A stretch of DNA of 6,617 nt from Deltaproteobacteria bacterium RIFOXYA12_FULL_61_11 (GCA_001799195.1 MGSU01000240.1:1-6617); one strand, 5' to 3'. Positions 1-6,389 are shown, counted from the stretch's first letter. Made by a program: numbers and translations. The notes: a model not told the origin generated them from the letters alone.

Positions 1-982
1 AGGAGTAAGCCAAGTCGTTGCTGGTCCACTTCTTTCCGGCCGTGTCGGCTCCCTCGCCGTCTCCGAGGAGCAGCCCGCGCAGGGTTCCTGTGGGAGTGTC
101 GACGGTGACGTACTGGGCGATGGAACTGTTGTTGGTGTTGTCGGTCTCGCCGTTGAAATAGATGACGCGGAAACGCACTCCTGGGGTACCGGTCGGGAGG
201 TCGGCGTTGAGCTCGACCTTGTGGATGGCTTTGGCGAAGAAGAGTTTGTGCAGGTCATCGCGTCCGCGCAAGAATTCAGGTTGTTTGATGAAAGCGTAGT
301 AGAGCGCCATCGCGGCGTTCGGATCCTTGTCCGAGAGCTCCTGCATCTTGGCCAACATGGCCTCGTAGCGTTGGAAGAAGGCGAGGGCGGTCTGGTCGAG
401 GGCCCCGCGTTCGGCCAGGGCCGCGCGCATGAAGTACACCCAGCGGTAGGTGTCATTGTAGGGGTAGTGGAAATAGGCCAGGGGACCCACGTCGAGGAGC
501 GAGTAGAAGACCTCGAAAATACCGTAGTGATCGAAGTGGGGATGCGTGAGGAGGAAATTGACCCGTGTATCTTTACGGAAGCCCTGGGCGACTAAGGTCT
601 CCATGGTGCGTTTCGCGCTGCCGCCGGGGCCGAGGTCCACGAACAGCGGAACCGCCGTGGGGAAATGCCACAGACTGACCGCACCGGTGTCCTCACCCGG
701 GTCGAGGACGTCGAAGACCGCCAGGGCCTTGGTCTCGGAGAACAGCTTGGCCCGGTATTCCTCGTAGGTCGGGGTCGAGGCGAGGAGCTTCTTCAAGGCG
801 GCCTGTTCCTCGGGGGTGTAGCCCGAGAAGGCCTGTCCCATGAAGGCGGCCTTCCCGAGGTGGCCATCGTCGAAGGACAGGCGATACGGGGCGATCAGTG
901 CCGAGAAGGTCGGATCGTCCTCGGCCATGGCGCAGAGCGCCGTAAAGATGGACAGGAATAGGATAGCGGTGAACCTGACCAT
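1..982 (-). CDS. Secreted metallo-beta-lactamase-fold hydrolase (C-terminus cut by window edge)
   Basis: The 327 visible residues begin at the ATG at 982 and the frame is still open at the left edge. Residues 1-20 form a signal peptide with a hydrophobic stretch and an AMA-ED cleavage site, so the protein is probably exported. The metal-binding signature HPHFDH lies at 147-152 (H147, H149, D151, H152), the HxHxDH motif of the metallo-beta-lactamase fold. Further on, NNSS at 284-287 followed by LLLGD (D308) resembles the 'NxxS...hhhhGD' strand pair of ComEC-like members, with D308 as the expected bridging metal ligand. About 100 residues between these motifs are largely helical-looking and not recognised. 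The last expected metal-binding His would lie beyond the edge. The gene sits 58 nt after the C1 peptidase on the same strand and is probably co-transcribed. The fold is a firm call; the substrate is unknown. Confidence 0.8.
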   Translation of the reverse strand, partial: MVRFTAILFLSIFTALCAMAEDDPTFSALIAPYRLSFDDGHLGKAAFMGQAFSGYTPEEQAALKKLLASTPTYEEYRAKLFSETKALAVFDVLDPGEDTGAVSLWHFPTAVPLFVDLGPGGSAKRTMETLVAQGFRKDTRVNFLLTHPHFDHYGIFEVFYSLLDVGPLAYFHYPYNDTYRWVYFMRAALAERGALDQTALAFFQRYEAMLAKMQELSDKDPNAAMALYYAFIKQPEFLRGRDDLHKLFFAKAIHKVELNADLPTGTPGVRFRVIYFNGETDNTNNSSIAQYVTVDTPTGTLRGLLLGDGEGADTAGKKWTSNDLAYS

Positions 983-1040: not shown

Positions 1041-1922
1041 TCATTTGGTGCCGGCCTCGAGCACGAAGAAGCCGGAAGTCGCATACATCTGGAGATACTT
1101 GCGCGAGAAGGTGCCGTACCCCTGGTTGCCGAAGGCCTTGCCCCAACTGTTGCGGAAGATGATGCGGTCTTCTTCGTCGTAGCCGACCAAGAGGATGGAA
1201 TGGGCGCTGACCGGCACGAAGGAACGCCAGGTCAACTTGCCTGGATCGACAAGACCTTTGGGTCCGCGCCACATCTCTTGCCACTTCATCGGTAGCAGTA
1301 CGGTGAGGAGTACGGTGTTGCCCTCGGCCAGTACGGCCTTGAGCAGGGATACGTTGCGGACCATGACCATGCCGACGTGGTTCGACTGCTCGATACACCA
1401 CTGGGGGCGCATCTCGAGACCGGCGGGCGGGGGACCTTGCGGGATGTTACCCTTGACGGGTTGCGGGTTGTAAGGCCAATCGGCCTCGGCAACGACGCAG
1501 AGCGGGTTGAGGGCTTCGACGTAGAGGTGGATGACCTCGGGCATGATGCCGTCGACCTTGGGGAAGTAGAACTTCTTGATCTGATAGTAGAGATGTTGTT
1601 CCGAGAGCTCTACTTTACCGCCGAATACACCCTCGAGGGCAGCGATGGTGGCGAAAGCGGTGCATGTTCCGCGGCCTCCTTGCTGTTTGATGGGGGTCAA
1701 AATATTGGTGTTGAGTACGGATTTCGGTAGGCCGCGTTCGAGGTCGAGATCGTACTGCTCTTTGACCTCGCGATTGACCAGTTTCTCTCGCGGCACACCG
1801 GTTTCATCTTCCACGAGTTCGAGCGGGATCAAGGAAGGTTCGAAGTCGGCGGGTACCCCGTCCTGGGCCAGGCCTGGAACGGCAACCGCCAGAAATACCA
1901 ACACCAACCAGCTCTGCACCAT
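1041..1922 (-). CDS. Secreted papain-like (C1 family) cysteine peptidase
   Basis: This 293-aa protein has a signal peptide (residues 1-19, cleavage near GLA-QD) and then a pro-region-like segment to about residue 65. The catalytic domain follows. Q81 is the expected oxyanion Gln and C87, in QGGRGTCTAFA, the nucleophile with the normal six-residue spacing. H241 (SAHSILLVGYD) is the catalytic His and N258 (RNSWG) the catalytic Asn. The 'QGxRGTCxAFA' form replaces the GSCWAF of papain and is typical of bacterial members. The triad looks complete, so activity outside the cytoplasm is likely; the substrate is unknown. The ATG at 1922 is supported by AGGAGG at 1929-1934 (six-base spacing) and by the signal peptide that starts there. 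It is the first gene of a probable two-gene unit with the metallo-hydrolase. Confidence 0.9.
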   Translation of the reverse strand: MVQSWLVLVFLAVAVPGLAQDGVPADFEPSLIPLELVEDETGVPREKLVNREVKEQYDLDLERGLPKSVLNTNILTPIKQQGGRGTCTAFATIAALEGVFGGKVELSEQHLYYQIKKFYFPKVDGIMPEVIHLYVEALNPLCVVAEADWPYNPQPVKGNIPQGPPPAGLEMRPQWCIEQSNHVGMVMVRNVSLLKAVLAEGNTVLLTVLLPMKWQEMWRGPKGLVDPGKLTWRSFVPVSAHSILLVGYDEEDRIIFRNSWGKAFGNQGYGTFSRKYLQMYATSGFFVLEAGTK

Positions 1923-1987: not shown

Positions 1988-2158
1988 GTGTCACGCGAGG
2001 GATATACCTTCAGTCTTGGGTGGTTCGAGGGGTCCTGTCACCTCTCACCCCCACCATGCTCATCCTTGCGCGTGGCGGGGGCCCCCCGTCGGTGCCACCC
2101 CAACGTAGTGACGAACAACAGGCTATCCATCCCAAGACTGAAGGGTGTCACGCGAGGG
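1988..2158. repeat. Composite element: 14-bp direct repeats flanking 14-bp inverted repeats
   Basis: GTGTCACGCGAGGG occurs at 1988-2001 and again in the same orientation at 2145-2158. Just inside these copies, CCTTCAGTCTTGGG (2007-2020) and its exact reverse complement (2131-2144) form terminal inverted repeats around a 110-bp core. The left side has five extra bases (ATATA, 2002-2006); the right side has none. The arrangement looks like target duplications around a small non-autonomous element, or like a paired regulator-binding region. It fills most of the gene-free stretch 1923-2189 between the cyclase stop and the peptidase start. No protein-coding signal was found there. Confidence 0.6.
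2072..2098. repeat. GC-rich inverted repeat within the composite element
   Basis: GTGGC (2072-2076) pairs with GCCAC (2094-2098), and inside lie G5 (2077-2081) and C6 (2082-2087), a strongly self-complementary core. It could fold in either strand. There is no T-run on either side, so it is not a convincing terminator for the cyclase gene that ends at 2190. Confidence 0.35.
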
Positions 2159-2189: not shown

Positions 2190-3101
2190 TCAGACCACGG
2201 TCAGACGGTTCCTGCCGTAGCGTTTGGAGCTGTAGAGGGCCTGATCGGCTCGCTGGAAGAGGGTCTCGAGCGTGTCGGTGTCGTGCAGCACCGCCATGCC
2301 AAGGCTGATGGTCACCGGGATAACTTGATCTTTGTGGGCGAAACGGTGTTCCGACACCTCTTTGCGCAGACGTTCGGCGACACTCACGGCGACTTCCTTG
2401 GTGATATCGGCGAGCAGCAGCAGGAGTTCTTCACCTCCGTACCGGATGGCCAGGTCGATCTCGCGAATGCCGCTCAGGATCACCCCTGCCGTTTCGGCCA
2501 GGACTAGGTCGCCGGCCTGGTGGCCGTAGGTGTCGTTGACCTTCTTGAAGTGGTCGAGATCGATCACGACCATGACCAGTTGCCGGTCGCGGCGGCGATA
2601 GTAGTCGATGATGCTGGGCAGTTGCTCGAGGAAATAGCTCTTCGACAAGAGGCCGGTCAGGGCGTCGCGCTGGGCAGACAGGGCCTTGGCCCGGAGGTCG
2701 CTGGCGAAGGCGATGTCTGCCTCGTCCATGAGATCGAAACGCAACAGGATGTCGCCGATGTAGATCTTGTCGCCGGGGCGAAGGGTGGCCTCGTCGATGC
2801 GTTGTCCGTTGACCCTGGTCCCGTTGGTGCTGCCGTTGTCGCGGAGCTGTACCCGGCCTTCGCAGAAGGTTACCTCGGCGTGCAGCCGTGAGACGCTGTC
2901 GTGGTTGATCCTGAAGGAGGCTTTCCGATCGCGGCCGATGCTCAGGCTCGGTTTCGCCGGATCGAGGGCTTGGATGAGGCCGACGTTCCAACCGCGCAGG
3001 ATCTGGAAGGCGGGGCTCCGCCGATTCTGGCGGGAAAGGGCCTCGTGTTCGCGCAGGTTGATCTTGCGGGTCTTGGTAACGCCGGTGATGTCCCGGGCCA
3101 T
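2190..3101 (-). CDS. FHA-GGDEF diguanylate cyclase (distal paralogue)
   Basis: This 303-aa cytoplasmic protein is predicted to make c-di-GMP from two GTP. Residues 1-45 are a basic tail beginning MARDITGVTKTRK. An FHA domain (phospho-Thr binding) follows at about 46-120, with G56-R57, S71-R72-x-H74 and GSTNGT (90-95). After a short linker the GGDEF domain starts at RDALTGLL (145-152). It has IDLDHFKKVND, the catalytic signature GGEEL (222-226) and a product-inhibition I-site RxxD (R213 to D216). No membrane segment is seen. I chose the ATG at 3101 over the in-frame TTG at 3110 because the resulting N-terminus aligns with the upstream paralogue and both proteins become exactly 303 aa. GGAG lies 11 nt upstream of this ATG, a rather long spacing. 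The 123-nt gap to the preceding cyclase may contain an extra promoter. Confidence 0.92.
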   Translation of the reverse strand: MARDITGVTKTRKINLREHEALSRQNRRSPAFQILRGWNVGLIQALDPAKPSLSIGRDRKASFRINHDSVSRLHAEVTFCEGRVQLRDNGSTNGTRVNGQRIDEATLRPGDKIYIGDILLRFDLMDEADIAFASDLRAKALSAQRDALTGLLSKSYFLEQLPSIIDYYRRRDRQLVMVVIDLDHFKKVNDTYGHQAGDLVLAETAGVILSGIREIDLAIRYGGEELLLLLADITKEVAVSVAERLRKEVSEHRFAHKDQVIPVTISLGMAVLHDTDTLETLFQRADQALYSSKRYGRNRLTVV

Positions 3102-3159
3102 GCTCGGCAATGCTCCGTTACTGACTACCGGGGCGATGTCTCTGCATCCCCCGGGGAAC

Positions 3160-3189
3160 TATATAATAGATGAAGCTCGCCGCCGTCAC
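3160..3189 (-). promoter_or_regulatory. Possible promoter for the distal cyclase gene
   Basis: In the 123-nt spacer (3102-3224) the minus strand carries GTGACG (3184-3189) and, 18 nt on, TATATA (3160-3165), inside the only AT-rich patch of the area. This is a weak sigma-70-like match. The spacer also holds a 6-bp inverted repeat, GCCGTC (3182-3187) with GACGGC (3213-3218), just after the upstream cyclase stop; no T-run follows it on the transcribed strand. Read-through from the kinase promoter remains possible. Confidence 0.3.
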
Positions 3190-3224
3190 GTCTTTTTTCC
3201 CTCGGTCCCAACGACGGCAAGGTT

Positions 3225-4136
3225 TCAACCGAGGCAGACGCGGTTCCTTCCCTCGGCTTTCGCGCGGTAGAGGGCCTGGTCGGCTCGACCGAAGAGCTGT
3301 TCTGCGTTCTCGCTCTCGCGGAGCATAGCCAGACCGAAGCTCGCGGTCACGGACAAGCGTTCGGCGCCGAAGGCGACCGGACTTCGCTCGAGTTCCCGGC
3401 GTAGGCGCTCAGCGGCGTCGAGGGCGGCTTGTTCGTGCAGGTCGTGGAGGATGATGATGAGCTCTTCTCCCCCGTACCTGATGGAGAGATCGTTCTCTCG
3501 GATATTGCCGAGGATGGTGGTACCAACCGCGTGGAGGACCGCGTCTCCGGCCTGGTGCCCATGAGAGTCGTTGATTTCTTTGAAGTGATCCAGGTCTATC
3601 ACCAGTAAGCCCAGGCCGATGTTCTTTTTCTGTGAGAAGCGGATCAGTTTGGGGATCTCCTCGAGCCAATAGGCCTTGGCGAGGAGACCGGTCAGCGCGT
3701 CGCGCGTGGCCGCCGCAGCTCGTTGGCGCAGCTCCACCTGGAAGTCGAGGTCCTCCTGGTCCATCAAGTCGAAGCGGAGGAGGAGGTCACCAACGTAAAA
3801 CTTGTCTCCCGGATAGAGGATCTTGCGCTTGATCTTGCGTCCTGCGACGATGGTGCCATTGGTGCTTCCCTCGTCCTTGAGCAGGAACCCACCCTTGCTG
3901 TCCTGGGTGACCGAGGCGTGAATGCGCGAGACGCTCTCGTGGCTCAAGCGGAAGGTCGCTTCGCGTCCGCGACCCAAGTAGACGATCTCGCCTTCGCTCT
4001 TCATGACGTAAAAGTGACCGACCTCGACCCCACGGAGGACTTGCAGGAAGCCGAACCGCTGATGCGGATCGCCGCTCGGTCTGATCGGACGGCGGGAAGG
4101 CTTGGTCCTGGTGATATCGGTGATGATTCTACTCAT
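3225..4136 (-). CDS. FHA-GGDEF diguanylate cyclase (kinase-proximal paralogue)
   Basis: This 303-aa protein has the same architecture as the downstream cyclase. A Thr-containing basic tail (MSRIITDITRTK, 1-12) is followed by an FHA domain at about 30-120, with G55-R56, S70-R71-x-H73 and GSTNGT (90-95). The GGDEF domain runs from RDALTGLL (145) and has IDLDHFKEIND, GGEEL (222-226) and an RxxD I-site (R213 to D216), so it should be catalytically active and feedback-inhibited. The frame is open upstream to about 4397, but that part lies inside the kinase gene and looks like an out-of-frame reading of it. The ATG at 4136 starts 4 nt after the kinase stop and gives an N-terminus matching the paralogue. 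A strong Shine-Dalgarno is lacking (only GAGAG), which suggests translational coupling to the kinase. The FHA domain probably reads a phospho-Thr made by that kinase (inference). Confidence 0.93.
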   Translation of the reverse strand: MSRIITDITRTKPSRRPIRPSGDPHQRFGFLQVLRGVEVGHFYVMKSEGEIVYLGRGREATFRLSHESVSRIHASVTQDSKGGFLLKDEGSTNGTIVAGRKIKRKILYPGDKFYVGDLLLRFDLMDQEDLDFQVELRQRAAAATRDALTGLLAKAYWLEEIPKLIRFSQKKNIGLGLLVIDLDHFKEINDSHGHQAGDAVLHAVGTTILGNIRENDLSIRYGGEELIIILHDLHEQAALDAAERLRRELERSPVAFGAERLSVTASFGLAMLRESENAEQLFGRADQALYRAKAEGRNRVCLG

Positions 4137-4140
4137 GCTC

Positions 4141-5178
4141 TCAAGGCACTTTGATGAAGAAGGCCGAGAGGACCAGACCCACGACGGCGAACAGGAATCC
4201 CAAGCCGACGAGGTCGGCGGGTCGTAAGCCGAGGGGTTCTTTGGGCACGGTTTTCTTCTTGGTGGGTTTCTCCTTGCCGACCCGAGCATACAGCAGCGCC
4301 AGGAGGCGACGGGGTATCGAGGATGGTGGCAGTAGCGTTTCGAGGGCTTCGCGCATCTCTCCCGCGTTGCTGAAGCGTTCAGCAGGTTCTGCGGCAAGAG
4401 CTTTCTTCAAGATATCGTTGAGTTCCTCGTTCGCGCTCGCCACCCGACGAGGGGCCGTGGTGGTGATTTTGGCGATGGTGGTGACCAGATCGTCCTTGCT
4501 TCCTACTCCGAAAGGGTTTCGCCTGGTCAGCAGTTCGTGCAAGAAGACGCCGCAGGCATAGATATCCGCGGAGGGAGAAGGGGGGCCTGCGTGCCCGCCG
4601 AACAGTTCCGGGGCCATGTACACAGGAGTACCTATCACCGCATCGGCGCGAGTCAGGTCTCCGCCGGCGGTCGGCCTGGCGACGCCGAAATCGCTGAGTT
4701 TCACCCTTCCTTCCGGGGTGAGCAGCACGTTCGAGGGCTTGATGTCGCGGTGGACCAATTTTTGGCGGTGCAGGTAGGCGAGGGCATCGAGCACCTCGCA
4801 GGTCAGCGCGACCGCTTCGTCCGGTGCGAGCGGTCCGAGCTTGCGCAGGAGCGCCTTGCAGTCAAGTCCCTCGACATACTCCAGGACGAGGTTCCAGGTC
4901 AGGTTGTCCTCGAAGAGGCGGTAGTGGCGTACGAGCCCCGGGTGGTTCAGCCCTGCCGCGAGTTCGAACTCCCGTCGGAAGCGGCGGATGAACTCCTTCT
5001 GACGGCCTAGTTCGGGAAACAACTCTTTGATAGCAAAAACATTACCTTCAGCATCTTCGACCTTGTAGACCGTCGCCATACCGCCTTTGCCCAACGGCCG
5101 TCCGAGGACCCGGTACTCCCCGATGGTGTCGTCCCTGGGTTGGTCGGCGAGGACCACGGTGGCGTTGTTCTTGGTCAT
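4141..5178 (-). CDS. Tail-anchored Ser/Thr protein kinase (PknB/Hanks type)
   Basis: This 345-aa protein has a complete kinase domain at about residues 22-285. It shows the glycine-rich loop GKGGMATVYK (30-39), the ATP-anchoring K51 in AIKE, the likely alpha-C Glu E70, the catalytic loop HRDIKPSN (143-150, D145), DFG (163-165) and TPVYMAPE (184-191). T176 and T184 in the activation loop are natural autophosphorylation candidates. A Lys-rich linker (301-313) leads to one hydrophobic segment (about 321-342) that ends three residues before the C-terminus. The kinase should therefore hang in the cytoplasm from the inner membrane with no outer sensor domain, unlike typical PknB proteins. The ATG at 5178 lacks a clear Shine-Dalgarno, but a good promoter lies just upstream. 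It is the first gene of the signalling cluster, and the adjacent FHA-GGDEF proteins are its most likely partners. Confidence 0.95.
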   Translation of the reverse strand: MTKNNATVVLADQPRDDTIGEYRVLGRPLGKGGMATVYKVEDAEGNVFAIKELFPELGRQKEFIRRFRREFELAAGLNHPGLVRHYRLFEDNLTWNLVLEYVEGLDCKALLRKLGPLAPDEAVALTCEVLDALAYLHRQKLVHRDIKPSNVLLTPEGRVKLSDFGVARPTAGGDLTRADAVIGTPVYMAPELFGGHAGPPSPSADIYACGVFLHELLTRRNPFGVGSKDDLVTTIAKITTTAPRRVASANEELNDILKKALAAEPAERFSNAGEMREALETLLPPSSIPRRLLALLYARVGKEKPTKKKTVPKEPLGLRPADLVGLGFLFAVVGLVLSAFFIKVP

Positions 5179-5402: not shown

Positions 5403-5750
5403 GGGGGCGATATGGTTTCGACGGGGTGGTAGAAGGTCGAACTGCATGGGGAGCATCCTCTTTCATCTCCTAAAACTGAAGGGGAACCCTATAAGTGCCG
5501 AAGACAACTTCGCACTGGCTGCGTAAGTAGCCCGTCTCTCCTGCTGACACCCGCTAGGTGGGCAGAGGCGCCGATTAGTGGGTTAGCGAGTTCGTGGCGC
5601 TCCCGCGCGACCTCGCGAAACAAACAGCGGAGCTGGCCAACGGCAATTCCGTCCGCAGAAGTGCCGAAGGCGAGAACAAAGAGCGGACTAACCATGTAGA
5701 TGTTCGGTTGGAAGCCATTTCGGACGCGGGTTCGACTCCCGCCGCCTCCA
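5403..5750 (+). ncRNA. ssrA: tmRNA (transfer-messenger RNA)
   Basis: tmRNA rescues stalled ribosomes with SmpB and adds a degradation tag. The 5' end GGGGGCGATATGGTTTCGAC is the standard one-piece tmRNA start. At the 3' end the T arm GCGGG-TTCGACT-CCCGC (5726-5742) leads to the acceptor strand CGCCTCC (5743-5749), which pairs with GGGGGCG (5403-5409) over 7 bp. This includes the G3-U pair that alanyl-tRNA synthetase recognises. The discriminator is A5750. The next genomic bases are TCA, so CCA is not encoded and must be added by the CCA-adding enzyme. GAAC and CATG at 5439-5448 can pair with CATG and GTTC at 5693-5705 as a helix closing the mRNA-like part. The 348-nt length is normal. No T-rich terminator is evident downstream. 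Confidence 0.96.
5497..5526 (+). other. tmRNA tag reading frame (AEDNFALAA, stop)
   Basis: The resume codon GCC (5497-5499) follows ATAAGT. The frame reads nine codons, AEDNFALAA, and stops at TAA (5524-5526). With the alanine carried by tmRNA itself, the added tag would be AAEDNFALAA. The ALAA ending is the classic degron recognised by ClpXP and related proteases; the start matches the usual position after the first pseudoknot. Confidence 0.93.
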
Positions 5751-5820
5751 TCATGGTGTGATTTTCTGAAGGCCAGGGAAGGCCGAAAACTCCTGAAAAC
5801 ACAAAATAGAAAAGACGAGA

Positions 5821-5900: not shown

Positions 5901-5969
5901 ATGAAGAAGCACGACCTGGTGAGGCGGTTGCAAGCGCTTGGCTCAAGGGAACCCTGGGGAGAAGAAGCC
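5901..5969 (+). pseudogene. Possible hicA toxin remnant, in frame with hicB
   Basis: From the ATG at 5901 the frame encodes 23 residues, MKKHDLVRRLQALG then SREPWGEEA, and continues without a stop into hicB. The first 14 residues resemble the start of HicA toxins (MKxxDLhxxLxxxG), which normally precede hicB in such operons. The remainder of HicA, including its essential His in the GxxH region, is absent, consistent with an internal deletion that left the start joined to the hicB leader. There is no Shine-Dalgarno before 5901. The match is short, so a chance resemblance or a plain N-terminal extension of HicB remains possible. Confidence 0.35.
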
Positions 5970-6389
5970 ATGAAGATCGAAGGGCGGTTGCACGAAGAGA
6001 AGGGCTGGTACTCGACCGAGGTGCCCATGCTCCTGGTCTACACCCAGGGGAAAACCCCGGCCGAGGCCTTCGCCATGACCAAGGATGCAATCGAAACCCT
6101 GGTGGACCGGGCGGGCTTCGAGGTGACCGTGACCCCCTGCGATGCAACGACCTTCGCGGTAGAGGCGAACGACCCGGCAACCCTGCTCGCGTTCGTCCTG
6201 CGGCAGCAACGAGGTCTCTGCAAGTTGACCGTGCGGCAGGTGGCGGCCCGGCTCGGCTCGAAGAACCCGAGCAGTTATGCCCAGTATGAACGGGGGACCA
6301 TCCGGCCGAGCTTCGAGACCTTCACCCGACTCCTCGGAGCCATCGACCCCCACCTTGCTCCCATGCTCAAGGTGGTCCGCACCGAATGA
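5970..6389 (+). CDS. hicB: HicB-family antitoxin with C-terminal helix-turn-helix
   Basis: This 139-aa protein has two parts. Residues 1-48 resemble the HicB partial RNase H-like domain: MKIEGRLHEEKGWYSTEVP, then QGKTPAEAFAMTKDAIETLVD. Residues about 75-124 form an Xre-like helix-turn-helix (LTVRQVAARLG, then SSYAQYERG and SFETFTRLLGAI). Such proteins neutralise the HicA mRNA interferase and repress their own operon. I prefer the ATG at 5970 because GGGGAG (5956-5961) precedes it with 8-nt spacing and the family begins there; the alternative ATG at 5901 would add 23 residues and has no Shine-Dalgarno. No complete hicA lies upstream, and none starts in the 228 bases downstream, so it appears to be an orphan antitoxin or a transcription regulator. 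The family call is from memory of its sequence pattern. Confidence 0.75.
   Translation: MKIEGRLHEEKGWYSTEVPMLLVYTQGKTPAEAFAMTKDAIETLVDRAGFEVTVTPCDATTFAVEANDPATLLAFVLRQQRGLCKLTVRQVAARLGSKNPSSYAQYERGTIRPSFETFTRLLGAIDPHLAPMLKVVRTE

What the first reader, a model, noticed from the sequence alone, without database searches (positions are those of the whole stretch)
2190..5178. Kinase plus twin FHA-GGDEF cyclases: a compact phospho-Thr to c-di-GMP relay
A Ser/Thr kinase is followed 4 nt later by an FHA-GGDEF cyclase and then by a second FHA-GGDEF paralogue. All motifs for kinase activity, phospho-Thr binding and c-di-GMP synthesis are intact. FHA-GGDEF enzymes are known (for example DgcB of Bdellovibrio), but a dedicated kinase in one operon with two such cyclases of equal length suggests a self-contained pathway. 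The duplicate may give two outputs or a heterodimeric cyclase.
Basis: partly seen in the sequence, partly recalled or inferred. Interest (0 to 1): 0.75.

Follow-up and report, generated by a model that had tools for sequence, protein, structure and literature searches.

The report
Kinase gene beside two FHA-GGDEF cyclases
A bacterium from a little-known phylum has a membrane-anchored protein kinase gene directly in front of two sister genes for enzymes that make the signal molecule c-di-GMP and carry a phosphate-reading domain; a similar kinase-plus-enzyme pairing turned out to be conserved across a separate class of bacteria, so it may point to the missing kinase for this enzyme type.

Summary
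A complete Hanks-type Ser/Thr kinase (4141-5178, minus) is followed 4 nt later by an FHA-GGDEF diguanylate cyclase (C1, 3225-4136) and, after 123 nt, by a second (C2, 2190-3101). Both are 303 aa, 47% identical, and sisters on a long stem. Catalytic and phospho-Thr-binding motifs are present. Refinements: the kinase is tail-anchored without a recognisable sensor; both cyclases carry GGEEL instead of the usual GGEEF; the self-phosphopeptide tail that gates Bdellovibrio DgcB is degenerate in C2 and not recognisable in C1; C2's place in the transcript is unproven.

The exact triplet was found nowhere else: not in the one related genome held, and none of 80 FHA-GGDEF neighbourhoods in the phylum of genome G029 has an adjacent same-strand kinase. 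In another class (46 genomes), however, the orthologous FHA-GGDEF gene lies within 300 nt of an upstream Ser/Thr kinase gene in 35 of 44 places. That kinase lineage differs from the window's, so the pairing probably arose independently.

This supports a dedicated kinase-to-FHA-GGDEF relay. 'Two outputs' and 'heterodimer' remain speculation. Verdict: new variant of a known kind (DgcB-like cyclases with an adjacent kinase). No phosphorylation was shown.

The parts
4141..5178 (-). Hanks-type Ser/Thr protein kinase, 345 aa; kinase domain about residues 22-285, all catalytic motifs present, one C-terminal transmembrane helix, no extracytoplasmic domain
   Evidence: Pfam PF00069 E 1.9e-52; motifs; best solved relatives are M. 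tuberculosis PknB kinase domains, E 3.3e-41; hydropathy 2.6 at 324-342
4153..4212 (-). Predicted tail anchor of the kinase (residues about 323-342), preceded by a lysine-rich stretch
   Evidence: Kyte-Doolittle maximum 2.59; the only confidently modelled helix (320-342) in an otherwise failed single-sequence model
3225..4136 (-). C1, FHA-GGDEF diguanylate cyclase, 303 aa, starts 4 nt after the kinase stop
   Evidence: Pfam FHA 4e-14, GGDEF 1.5e-41; FHA, I-site and A-site motifs; AF2 model with 1-25 disordered, FHA, helix 127-148, GGDEF; best PDB fold match DgcB 6hbz
2190..3101 (-). C2, second FHA-GGDEF diguanylate cyclase, 303 aa
   Evidence: Pfam FHA 1.9e-18, GGDEF 1.5e-42; best PDB sequence match 6hbz E 1.7e-44; sister of C1, support 100/100
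3084..3086 (-). Thr6 codon of C2, candidate phospho-acceptor in the N-terminal tail (RDITGVTKT)
   Evidence: Best match to the family tail profile, score 4.8, shuffle p 0.05; family lower quartile 5.5
4119..4121 (-). Thr6 codon of C1, aligned position; motif not significant (RIITDITRT)
   Evidence: Profile score -2.6, shuffle p 0.57
3459..3473 (-). GGEEL active-site motif of C1 (residues 222-226)
2424..2438 (-). GGEEL active-site motif of C2 (residues 222-226)
3102..3224 (-). Gap between C1 and C2; contains an A+T-rich stretch (TATTATATAG) that could be a promoter of its own for C2; unproven
   Evidence: sequence; no consensus promoter found by the scan

Best explanation
A membrane-tethered Ser/Thr kinase and two diverged sister copies of a DgcB-like FHA-GGDEF diguanylate cyclase form a phospho-threonine-to-c-di-GMP relay. 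Shown: the three genes, their order, and their intact domains and motifs. Inferred from the DgcB precedent: the active kinase phosphorylates a threonine in the disordered N-terminal tail of C2 (best candidate Thr6) and a less clear one in C1; the phospho-tail is bound by an FHA domain, which rearranges the dimer through the linker helix and brings two GGEEL active sites together to make c-di-GMP; the RxxD I-site then shuts the enzyme off. The input to the kinase, and whether C1 and C2 differ in output or pair with each other, are unknown.
For: Domains and motifs. The kinase-C1 gap is only 4 nt. Closest solved relative by sequence and by fold is DgcB 6hbz. In DgcB a phosphorylated N-terminal Thr14 binds the FHA domain and is proposed to activate the GGDEF domain; [quoted passage not shown] The tail motif [DE]xTx[VILM] is present in 110 of 160 FHA-GGDEF relatives. 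Across one class, 35 of 44 orthologous FHA-GGDEF genes lie within 300 nt downstream of a same-strand Ser/Thr kinase gene. A further kinase/FHA-GGDEF pair is at L289. The first 12 residues of C1 and C2 share 7 identities, the next 18 only 2 (Fisher p 0.0125, a comparison chosen after seeing the alignment). GGEEL need not mean inactivity: B. subtilis DgcP, listed among that organism's diguanylate cyclases, has it (PMC5422440).
Against: The canonical tail motif is only marginal in C2 and absent in C1. The triplet was not found in any other genome examined, and no adjacent same-strand kinase was seen in 80 neighbourhoods in the phylum of G029. The kinase of the conserved pairs belongs to a different lineage, so that conservation is analogous and not direct. 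Nothing experimental is available.
Confidence: 0.55

Rival explanations
1. FHA docking in trans: the FHA domains of C1 and C2 do not read their own tails but bind a phospho-threonine on the kinase (activation loop or N-terminal tail) or on a third protein, so the cyclases are recruited to the membrane kinase and work as a complex.
For: The tail motif is weak in C2 and lost in C1 while the FHA pThr-binding residues are kept. The kinase has an N-terminal NATVVLAD stretch with hydrophobic residues at +1 to +3 (profile score 1.6, p 0.19) and a PknB-like activation loop with a threonine. FHA docking on phosphorylated PknB is established for GarA (general knowledge).
Against: The kinase N-terminal match is not significant. 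The N-terminal island of identity between C1 and C2 (7 of 12 residues) argues that the tails still matter.
Confidence: 0.2
2. Neighbours without a dedicated link: the kinase is a general one, and the two cyclases answer to other kinases of the cell or to none.
For: The triplet is not conserved in the other genome of the phylum and no same-strand adjacent kinase was seen in 80 neighbourhoods in the phylum of G029. About ten other kinase matches are present in the same genome. FHA-GGDEF genes usually stand alone.
Against: 4-nt spacing on the same strand; with about 11 kinase matches in 4.64 Mb, chance adjacency to one of four FHA-GGDEF genes is roughly a 1% event (own estimate). Pairing is conserved class-wide elsewhere.
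Confidence: 0.17
3. Only the kinase and C1 form the functional unit; C2 is a duplicate with its own promoter and a different regulator. (This overlaps in part with the other readings; confidences are not meant to add to one.)
For: 123-nt gap with an A+T-rich stretch between C1 and C2; tails differ, and only C2 keeps the acidic residue at -2.
Against: C1 and C2 are sisters of identical length with shared tail positions T6, T9, T11 and K12.
Confidence: 0.2

Closest known systems
DgcB (Bd0742) of Bdellovibrio bacteriovorus, PDB 6hbz
   Same: Tail-FHA-GGDEF architecture, similar length, pThr-binding residues, I-site, best sequence and fold match
   Different: The kinase of DgcB was unidentified in the 2019 paper; single gene; clear LEKTSIV tail, against degenerate tails here; GGEEL here where nearly all relatives have GGEEF (PMC6733907)
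[quoted passage not shown]
   Same: A dedicated kinase physically tied to an FHA-GGDEF enzyme
   Different: One fused 974-aa polypeptide as cited in PMC6733907; here separate genes, a membrane anchor and two cyclases. Not examined directly here.
Conserved kinase/FHA-GGDEF gene pair in the class of genome G326
   Same: Ser/Thr kinase gene immediately upstream of one FHA-GGDEF gene, canonical tail of the [DE]xT[IV][IV] kind, 35 of 44 places
   Different: Kinases of another lineage (HRDISPQN; clade 100/100 that leaves out the window kinase), usually with a predicted TM segment and a longer C-terminal region; one cyclase, not two
SiaABCD of Pseudomonas aeruginosa
   Same: Threonine phosphorylation controlling a diguanylate cyclase (PMC7647112)
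   Different: The switch is the separate protein SiaC with kinase SiaB and phosphatase SiaA (partner switch), not an FHA domain on the cyclase; no such genes in the window
PknB/StkP-type bacterial kinases with FHA substrates GarA/OdhI
   Same: Kinase domain is PknB-like; FHA self-peptide logic
   Different: No PASTA domains here (PASTA kinase model 226 bits against cut-off 450); the output is a cyclase and not a metabolic inhibitor

Membership tests
DgcB-like FHA-GGDEF diguanylate cyclases | N-terminal FHA followed by C-terminal GGDEF | tested here: met
   Pfam both domains in C1 and C2; fold search top hit 6hbz
DgcB-like FHA-GGDEF diguanylate cyclases | FHA residues for phospho-Thr (GR, SxxH, STN) | tested here: met
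   GR, SRIH/SRLH, STNGT present; DgcB contacts R61, R76, S95, T96, N97 (PMC6733907)
DgcB-like FHA-GGDEF diguanylate cyclases | N-terminal self-phosphopeptide tail ([DE]xTx[VI]) | tested here: inconclusive
   C2 marginal (score 4.8, p 0.05); C1 not recognisable (score -2.6, p 0.57)
DgcB-like FHA-GGDEF diguanylate cyclases | Catalytic A-site and RxxD I-site | tested here: met
   GGEEL with REND/REID five residues upstream; GGEEL is a minority variant also found in B. subtilis DgcP
DgcB-like FHA-GGDEF diguanylate cyclases | c-di-GMP synthesis gated by phosphorylation | not testable with these tools
   needs an enzyme assay
Hanks-type (PknB-like) Ser/Thr kinase | Catalytic motifs P-loop, Lys, HRD, DFG, APE | tested here: met
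   PF00069 E 1.9e-52
PknB/StkP PASTA kinase (NF033483 equivalog) | PASTA repeats / equivalog cut-off | tested here: not met
   226.3 bits against cut-off 450, match limited to the kinase domain
SiaABCD pathway | SiaA phosphatase, SiaB kinase and SiaC partner genes next to the cyclase | tested here: not met
   window genes are a Hanks kinase, two FHA-GGDEF genes, papain-like, HTH and tmRNA genes and one cut gene without Pfam match
Hypr GGDEF (cGAMP synthases) | Non-Asp specificity residue in GHxxG[D] | tested here: not met
   Asp in both cyclases (GHQAGD) and in 92 of 92 sequences with the motif; meaning of the residue from general knowledge
Conserved kinase/FHA-GGDEF operon of the class of G326 | Kinase of the HRDISPQN clade upstream of the cyclase | tested here: not met
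   window kinase is outside that clade (support 100/100); same gene order only

The most novel reading that the evidence does not exclude
C1 and C2 have given up the canonical self-peptide and instead dock through their FHA domains on the autophosphorylated, membrane-anchored kinase, forming a kinase-cyclase complex (possibly a C1/C2 heterodimer) that makes c-di-GMP locally at the membrane.
Probability: 0.15. Interest if true: 0.75.

Novelty: new variant of a known kind. Interest (0 to 1): 0.52.

Why it matters
DgcB is the model for phosphopeptide-gated c-di-GMP synthesis and is needed for Bdellovibrio predation, but the 2019 paper could not name its kinase. Kinase genes placed directly against FHA-GGDEF genes, here and across a whole other class, supply natural candidate kinase-substrate pairs in which the phosphorylation step can be tested in vitro. 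They suggest that Ser/Thr kinase to c-di-GMP relays have been assembled more than once.

Tried and rejected
The genome-contig scan with the C1/C2 alignment used FHA-only patterns and gave 13 loci with FHA matches but no useful FHA-GGDEF neighbourhood. Two long open frames suspected to be kinase fusions (L179 834 aa, L195 1248 aa) hold only FHA and GGDEF domains by Pfam. The single-sequence kinase model failed (pLDDT 39) and was not used beyond the C-terminal helix. A paper search combining GGDEF, FHA domain, threonine kinase, c-di-GMP and phosphothreonine gave nothing; another with STPK gave nothing. The claim that C1 keeps the DgcB-type tail motif was tested with a profile and rejected. Common origin with the pairs of the G326 class was tested by a kinase tree and not supported; the cyclases do not group with that class either. 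The apparent grouping of the window kinase with that of L289 is weak (90/78) and joins long branches, so it is not used. The class of G326 could not be named with these tools.

Full report
What is there. On the minus strand of a 6617-base contig of a draft genome (4.64 Mb, 342 contigs, only one other genome of its phylum held) lie a Ser/Thr kinase gene (5178-4141) and two FHA-GGDEF genes, C1 (4136-3225) and C2 (3101-2190). Pfam assigns Pkinase to the first and FHA plus GGDEF to the others with strong scores. The kinase has the P-loop, catalytic Lys, HRDIKPSN, DFG and APE motifs; each cyclase has the FHA GR, SRxH and NGT motifs, an RxxD I-site and a GGEEL active site. The kinase stop and the C1 start are 4 nt apart; C1 and C2 are 123 nt apart.

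The kinase ends in one strongly hydrophobic helix (about residues 323-342) after a lysine-rich stretch, with only a few residues beyond it: it is probably tail-anchored in the membrane and has no recognisable sensor domain. Its closest solved relatives are PknB kinase domains, but it is not a PASTA kinase. Both cyclases have GGEEL, while 88 of 95 FHA-GGDEF proteins compared have GGEEF. This does not by itself mean loss of activity: DgcP of B. subtilis has GGEEL (PMC5422440). C1 and C2 are each other's closest relatives (100/100) on a long stem of about 1.0-1.3 changes per site, so the pair has evolved far from the FHA-GGDEF proteins compared.

Comparison with DgcB. The best PDB match by sequence (6hbz, E 1.7e-44 for C2) and by fold (6hbz ranks 1 and 2 for the modest C1 model, pLDDT 63) is full-length Bdellovibrio DgcB. 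There the phosphorylated Thr14 of the disordered N-terminal tail binds the FHA domain, which is proposed to activate the GGDEF domain, and the kinase was unknown; [quoted passage not shown] I collected 160 different tails of relatives; 110 contain [DE]xTx[VILM], and the aligned motifs give a profile (acidic at -2, T, I/V at +2; the profile was built from tails chosen by that pattern). By this profile C2 has a marginal match at Thr6 (RDITGVTKT, shuffle p 0.05) and C1 none (p 0.57). The other two FHA-GGDEF proteins of the same genome (L085) keep clear EKTI tails. Yet the first 12 residues of C1 and C2 share 7 identities against 2 in the next 18 (p 0.0125, chosen after the fact), so a short N-terminal motif seems to be maintained. 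The tail mechanism is therefore plausible for C2, open for C1.

Is the arrangement conserved? I tested this in three samples. The same-class genome G001 has two FHA-GGDEF genes and no kinase beside them. (2) A broad sample of 386 genomes, mostly of different families: 2 of 40 neighbourhoods have an adjacent same-strand kinase, L267 and L289 (domains confirmed). (3) The class of G326, to which L267 belongs: 43 of 46 genomes have an orthologous FHA-GGDEF gene, and in 35 of 44 places a Ser/Thr kinase gene lies within 300 nt upstream on the same strand (25 of 30, 10 of 14; three of the remaining nine have under 310 nt of upstream sequence, so 35 of 41 with readable upstream sequence). Such conservation over some forty genera is not chance.

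Relation to the window. The kinases of the G326 class form a clade (100/100) that leaves out the window kinase, and the cyclases do not group either. The window therefore looks like an independent assembly of the same kind of pair, with a duplicated cyclase. One kinase elsewhere in the window's own genome (C80, L035) does fall in the G326-class clade.

Most likely mechanism. The membrane kinase, activated by an unknown input, phosphorylates the cyclase tails (best candidate Thr6 of C2); FHA binding of the phospho-tail rearranges the dimer through helix 127-148 and switches on c-di-GMP synthesis; the I-site limits it. Gene order, domains and motifs are shown; every step of signal flow is inference. 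The main rival is FHA docking on the phosphorylated kinase or a third protein, which would explain the weak tail of C1. Plain coincidence is less likely given the 4-nt spacing and the class-wide pairs. Reset would need a phosphatase; three PP2C-type matches exist elsewhere in the genome, none in the window.

Verdict. It is a new variant of a known kind: DgcB-like cyclases with an adjacent kinase. The wider and more useful result is the conserved kinase/FHA-GGDEF gene pair in the class of G326, of which the searches of the paper library found no description (the library lacks most subscription journals).

Noticed in passing
window 2007-2144: A 138-bp element with perfect 14-bp terminal inverted repeats (CCTTCAGTCTTGGG / CCCAAGACTGAAGG), 40 further places matched in the same genome at 83-97% identity (possibly more); strong fold on the minus strand (-84.5 kcal/mol, z -3.9 for 1988-2160), no Rfam match. 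MITE-like; lies just downstream of C2.
   Followed up: partly
G000:C329:1169-2956 (L085): A second, independently duplicated tandem FHA-GGDEF pair in the same genome, with canonical EKTI tails and no kinase nearby.
   Followed up: partly
L267, L290-L319, L321-L338: Conserved Ser/Thr kinase / FHA-GGDEF gene pair across an unnamed class (43 of 46 genomes with the cyclase, 35 of 44 places with the kinase directly upstream).
   Followed up: yes
G000:C80:9752-10591 (L035): A kinase of the same lineage as those of the G326-class pairs, on the same contig as an FHA-domain match about 4 kb away (C80:5870-6013).
   Followed up: no
window 5403-5753, plus strand: tmRNA gene (tag AEDNFALAA), divergent from the kinase gene; they share a 224-bp intergenic region.
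   Followed up: no
window 5901-6389, plus strand: 162-aa protein with C-terminal HTH_3 domain and an N-terminal part that looks HicB-like by eye (antitoxin-like), downstream of the tmRNA gene.
   Followed up: no
window 1041-1922, minus strand: Papain-family (C1) cysteine protease with a likely signal peptide (by eye), a weak-to-moderate match to Peptidase_C1 (E 7e-12).
   Followed up: no
window 2-982, minus strand: Secreted-looking protein cut by the contig end, no Pfam match; contains HFDHYG, a possible metallo-beta-lactamase-type metal motif (by eye).
   Followed up: no
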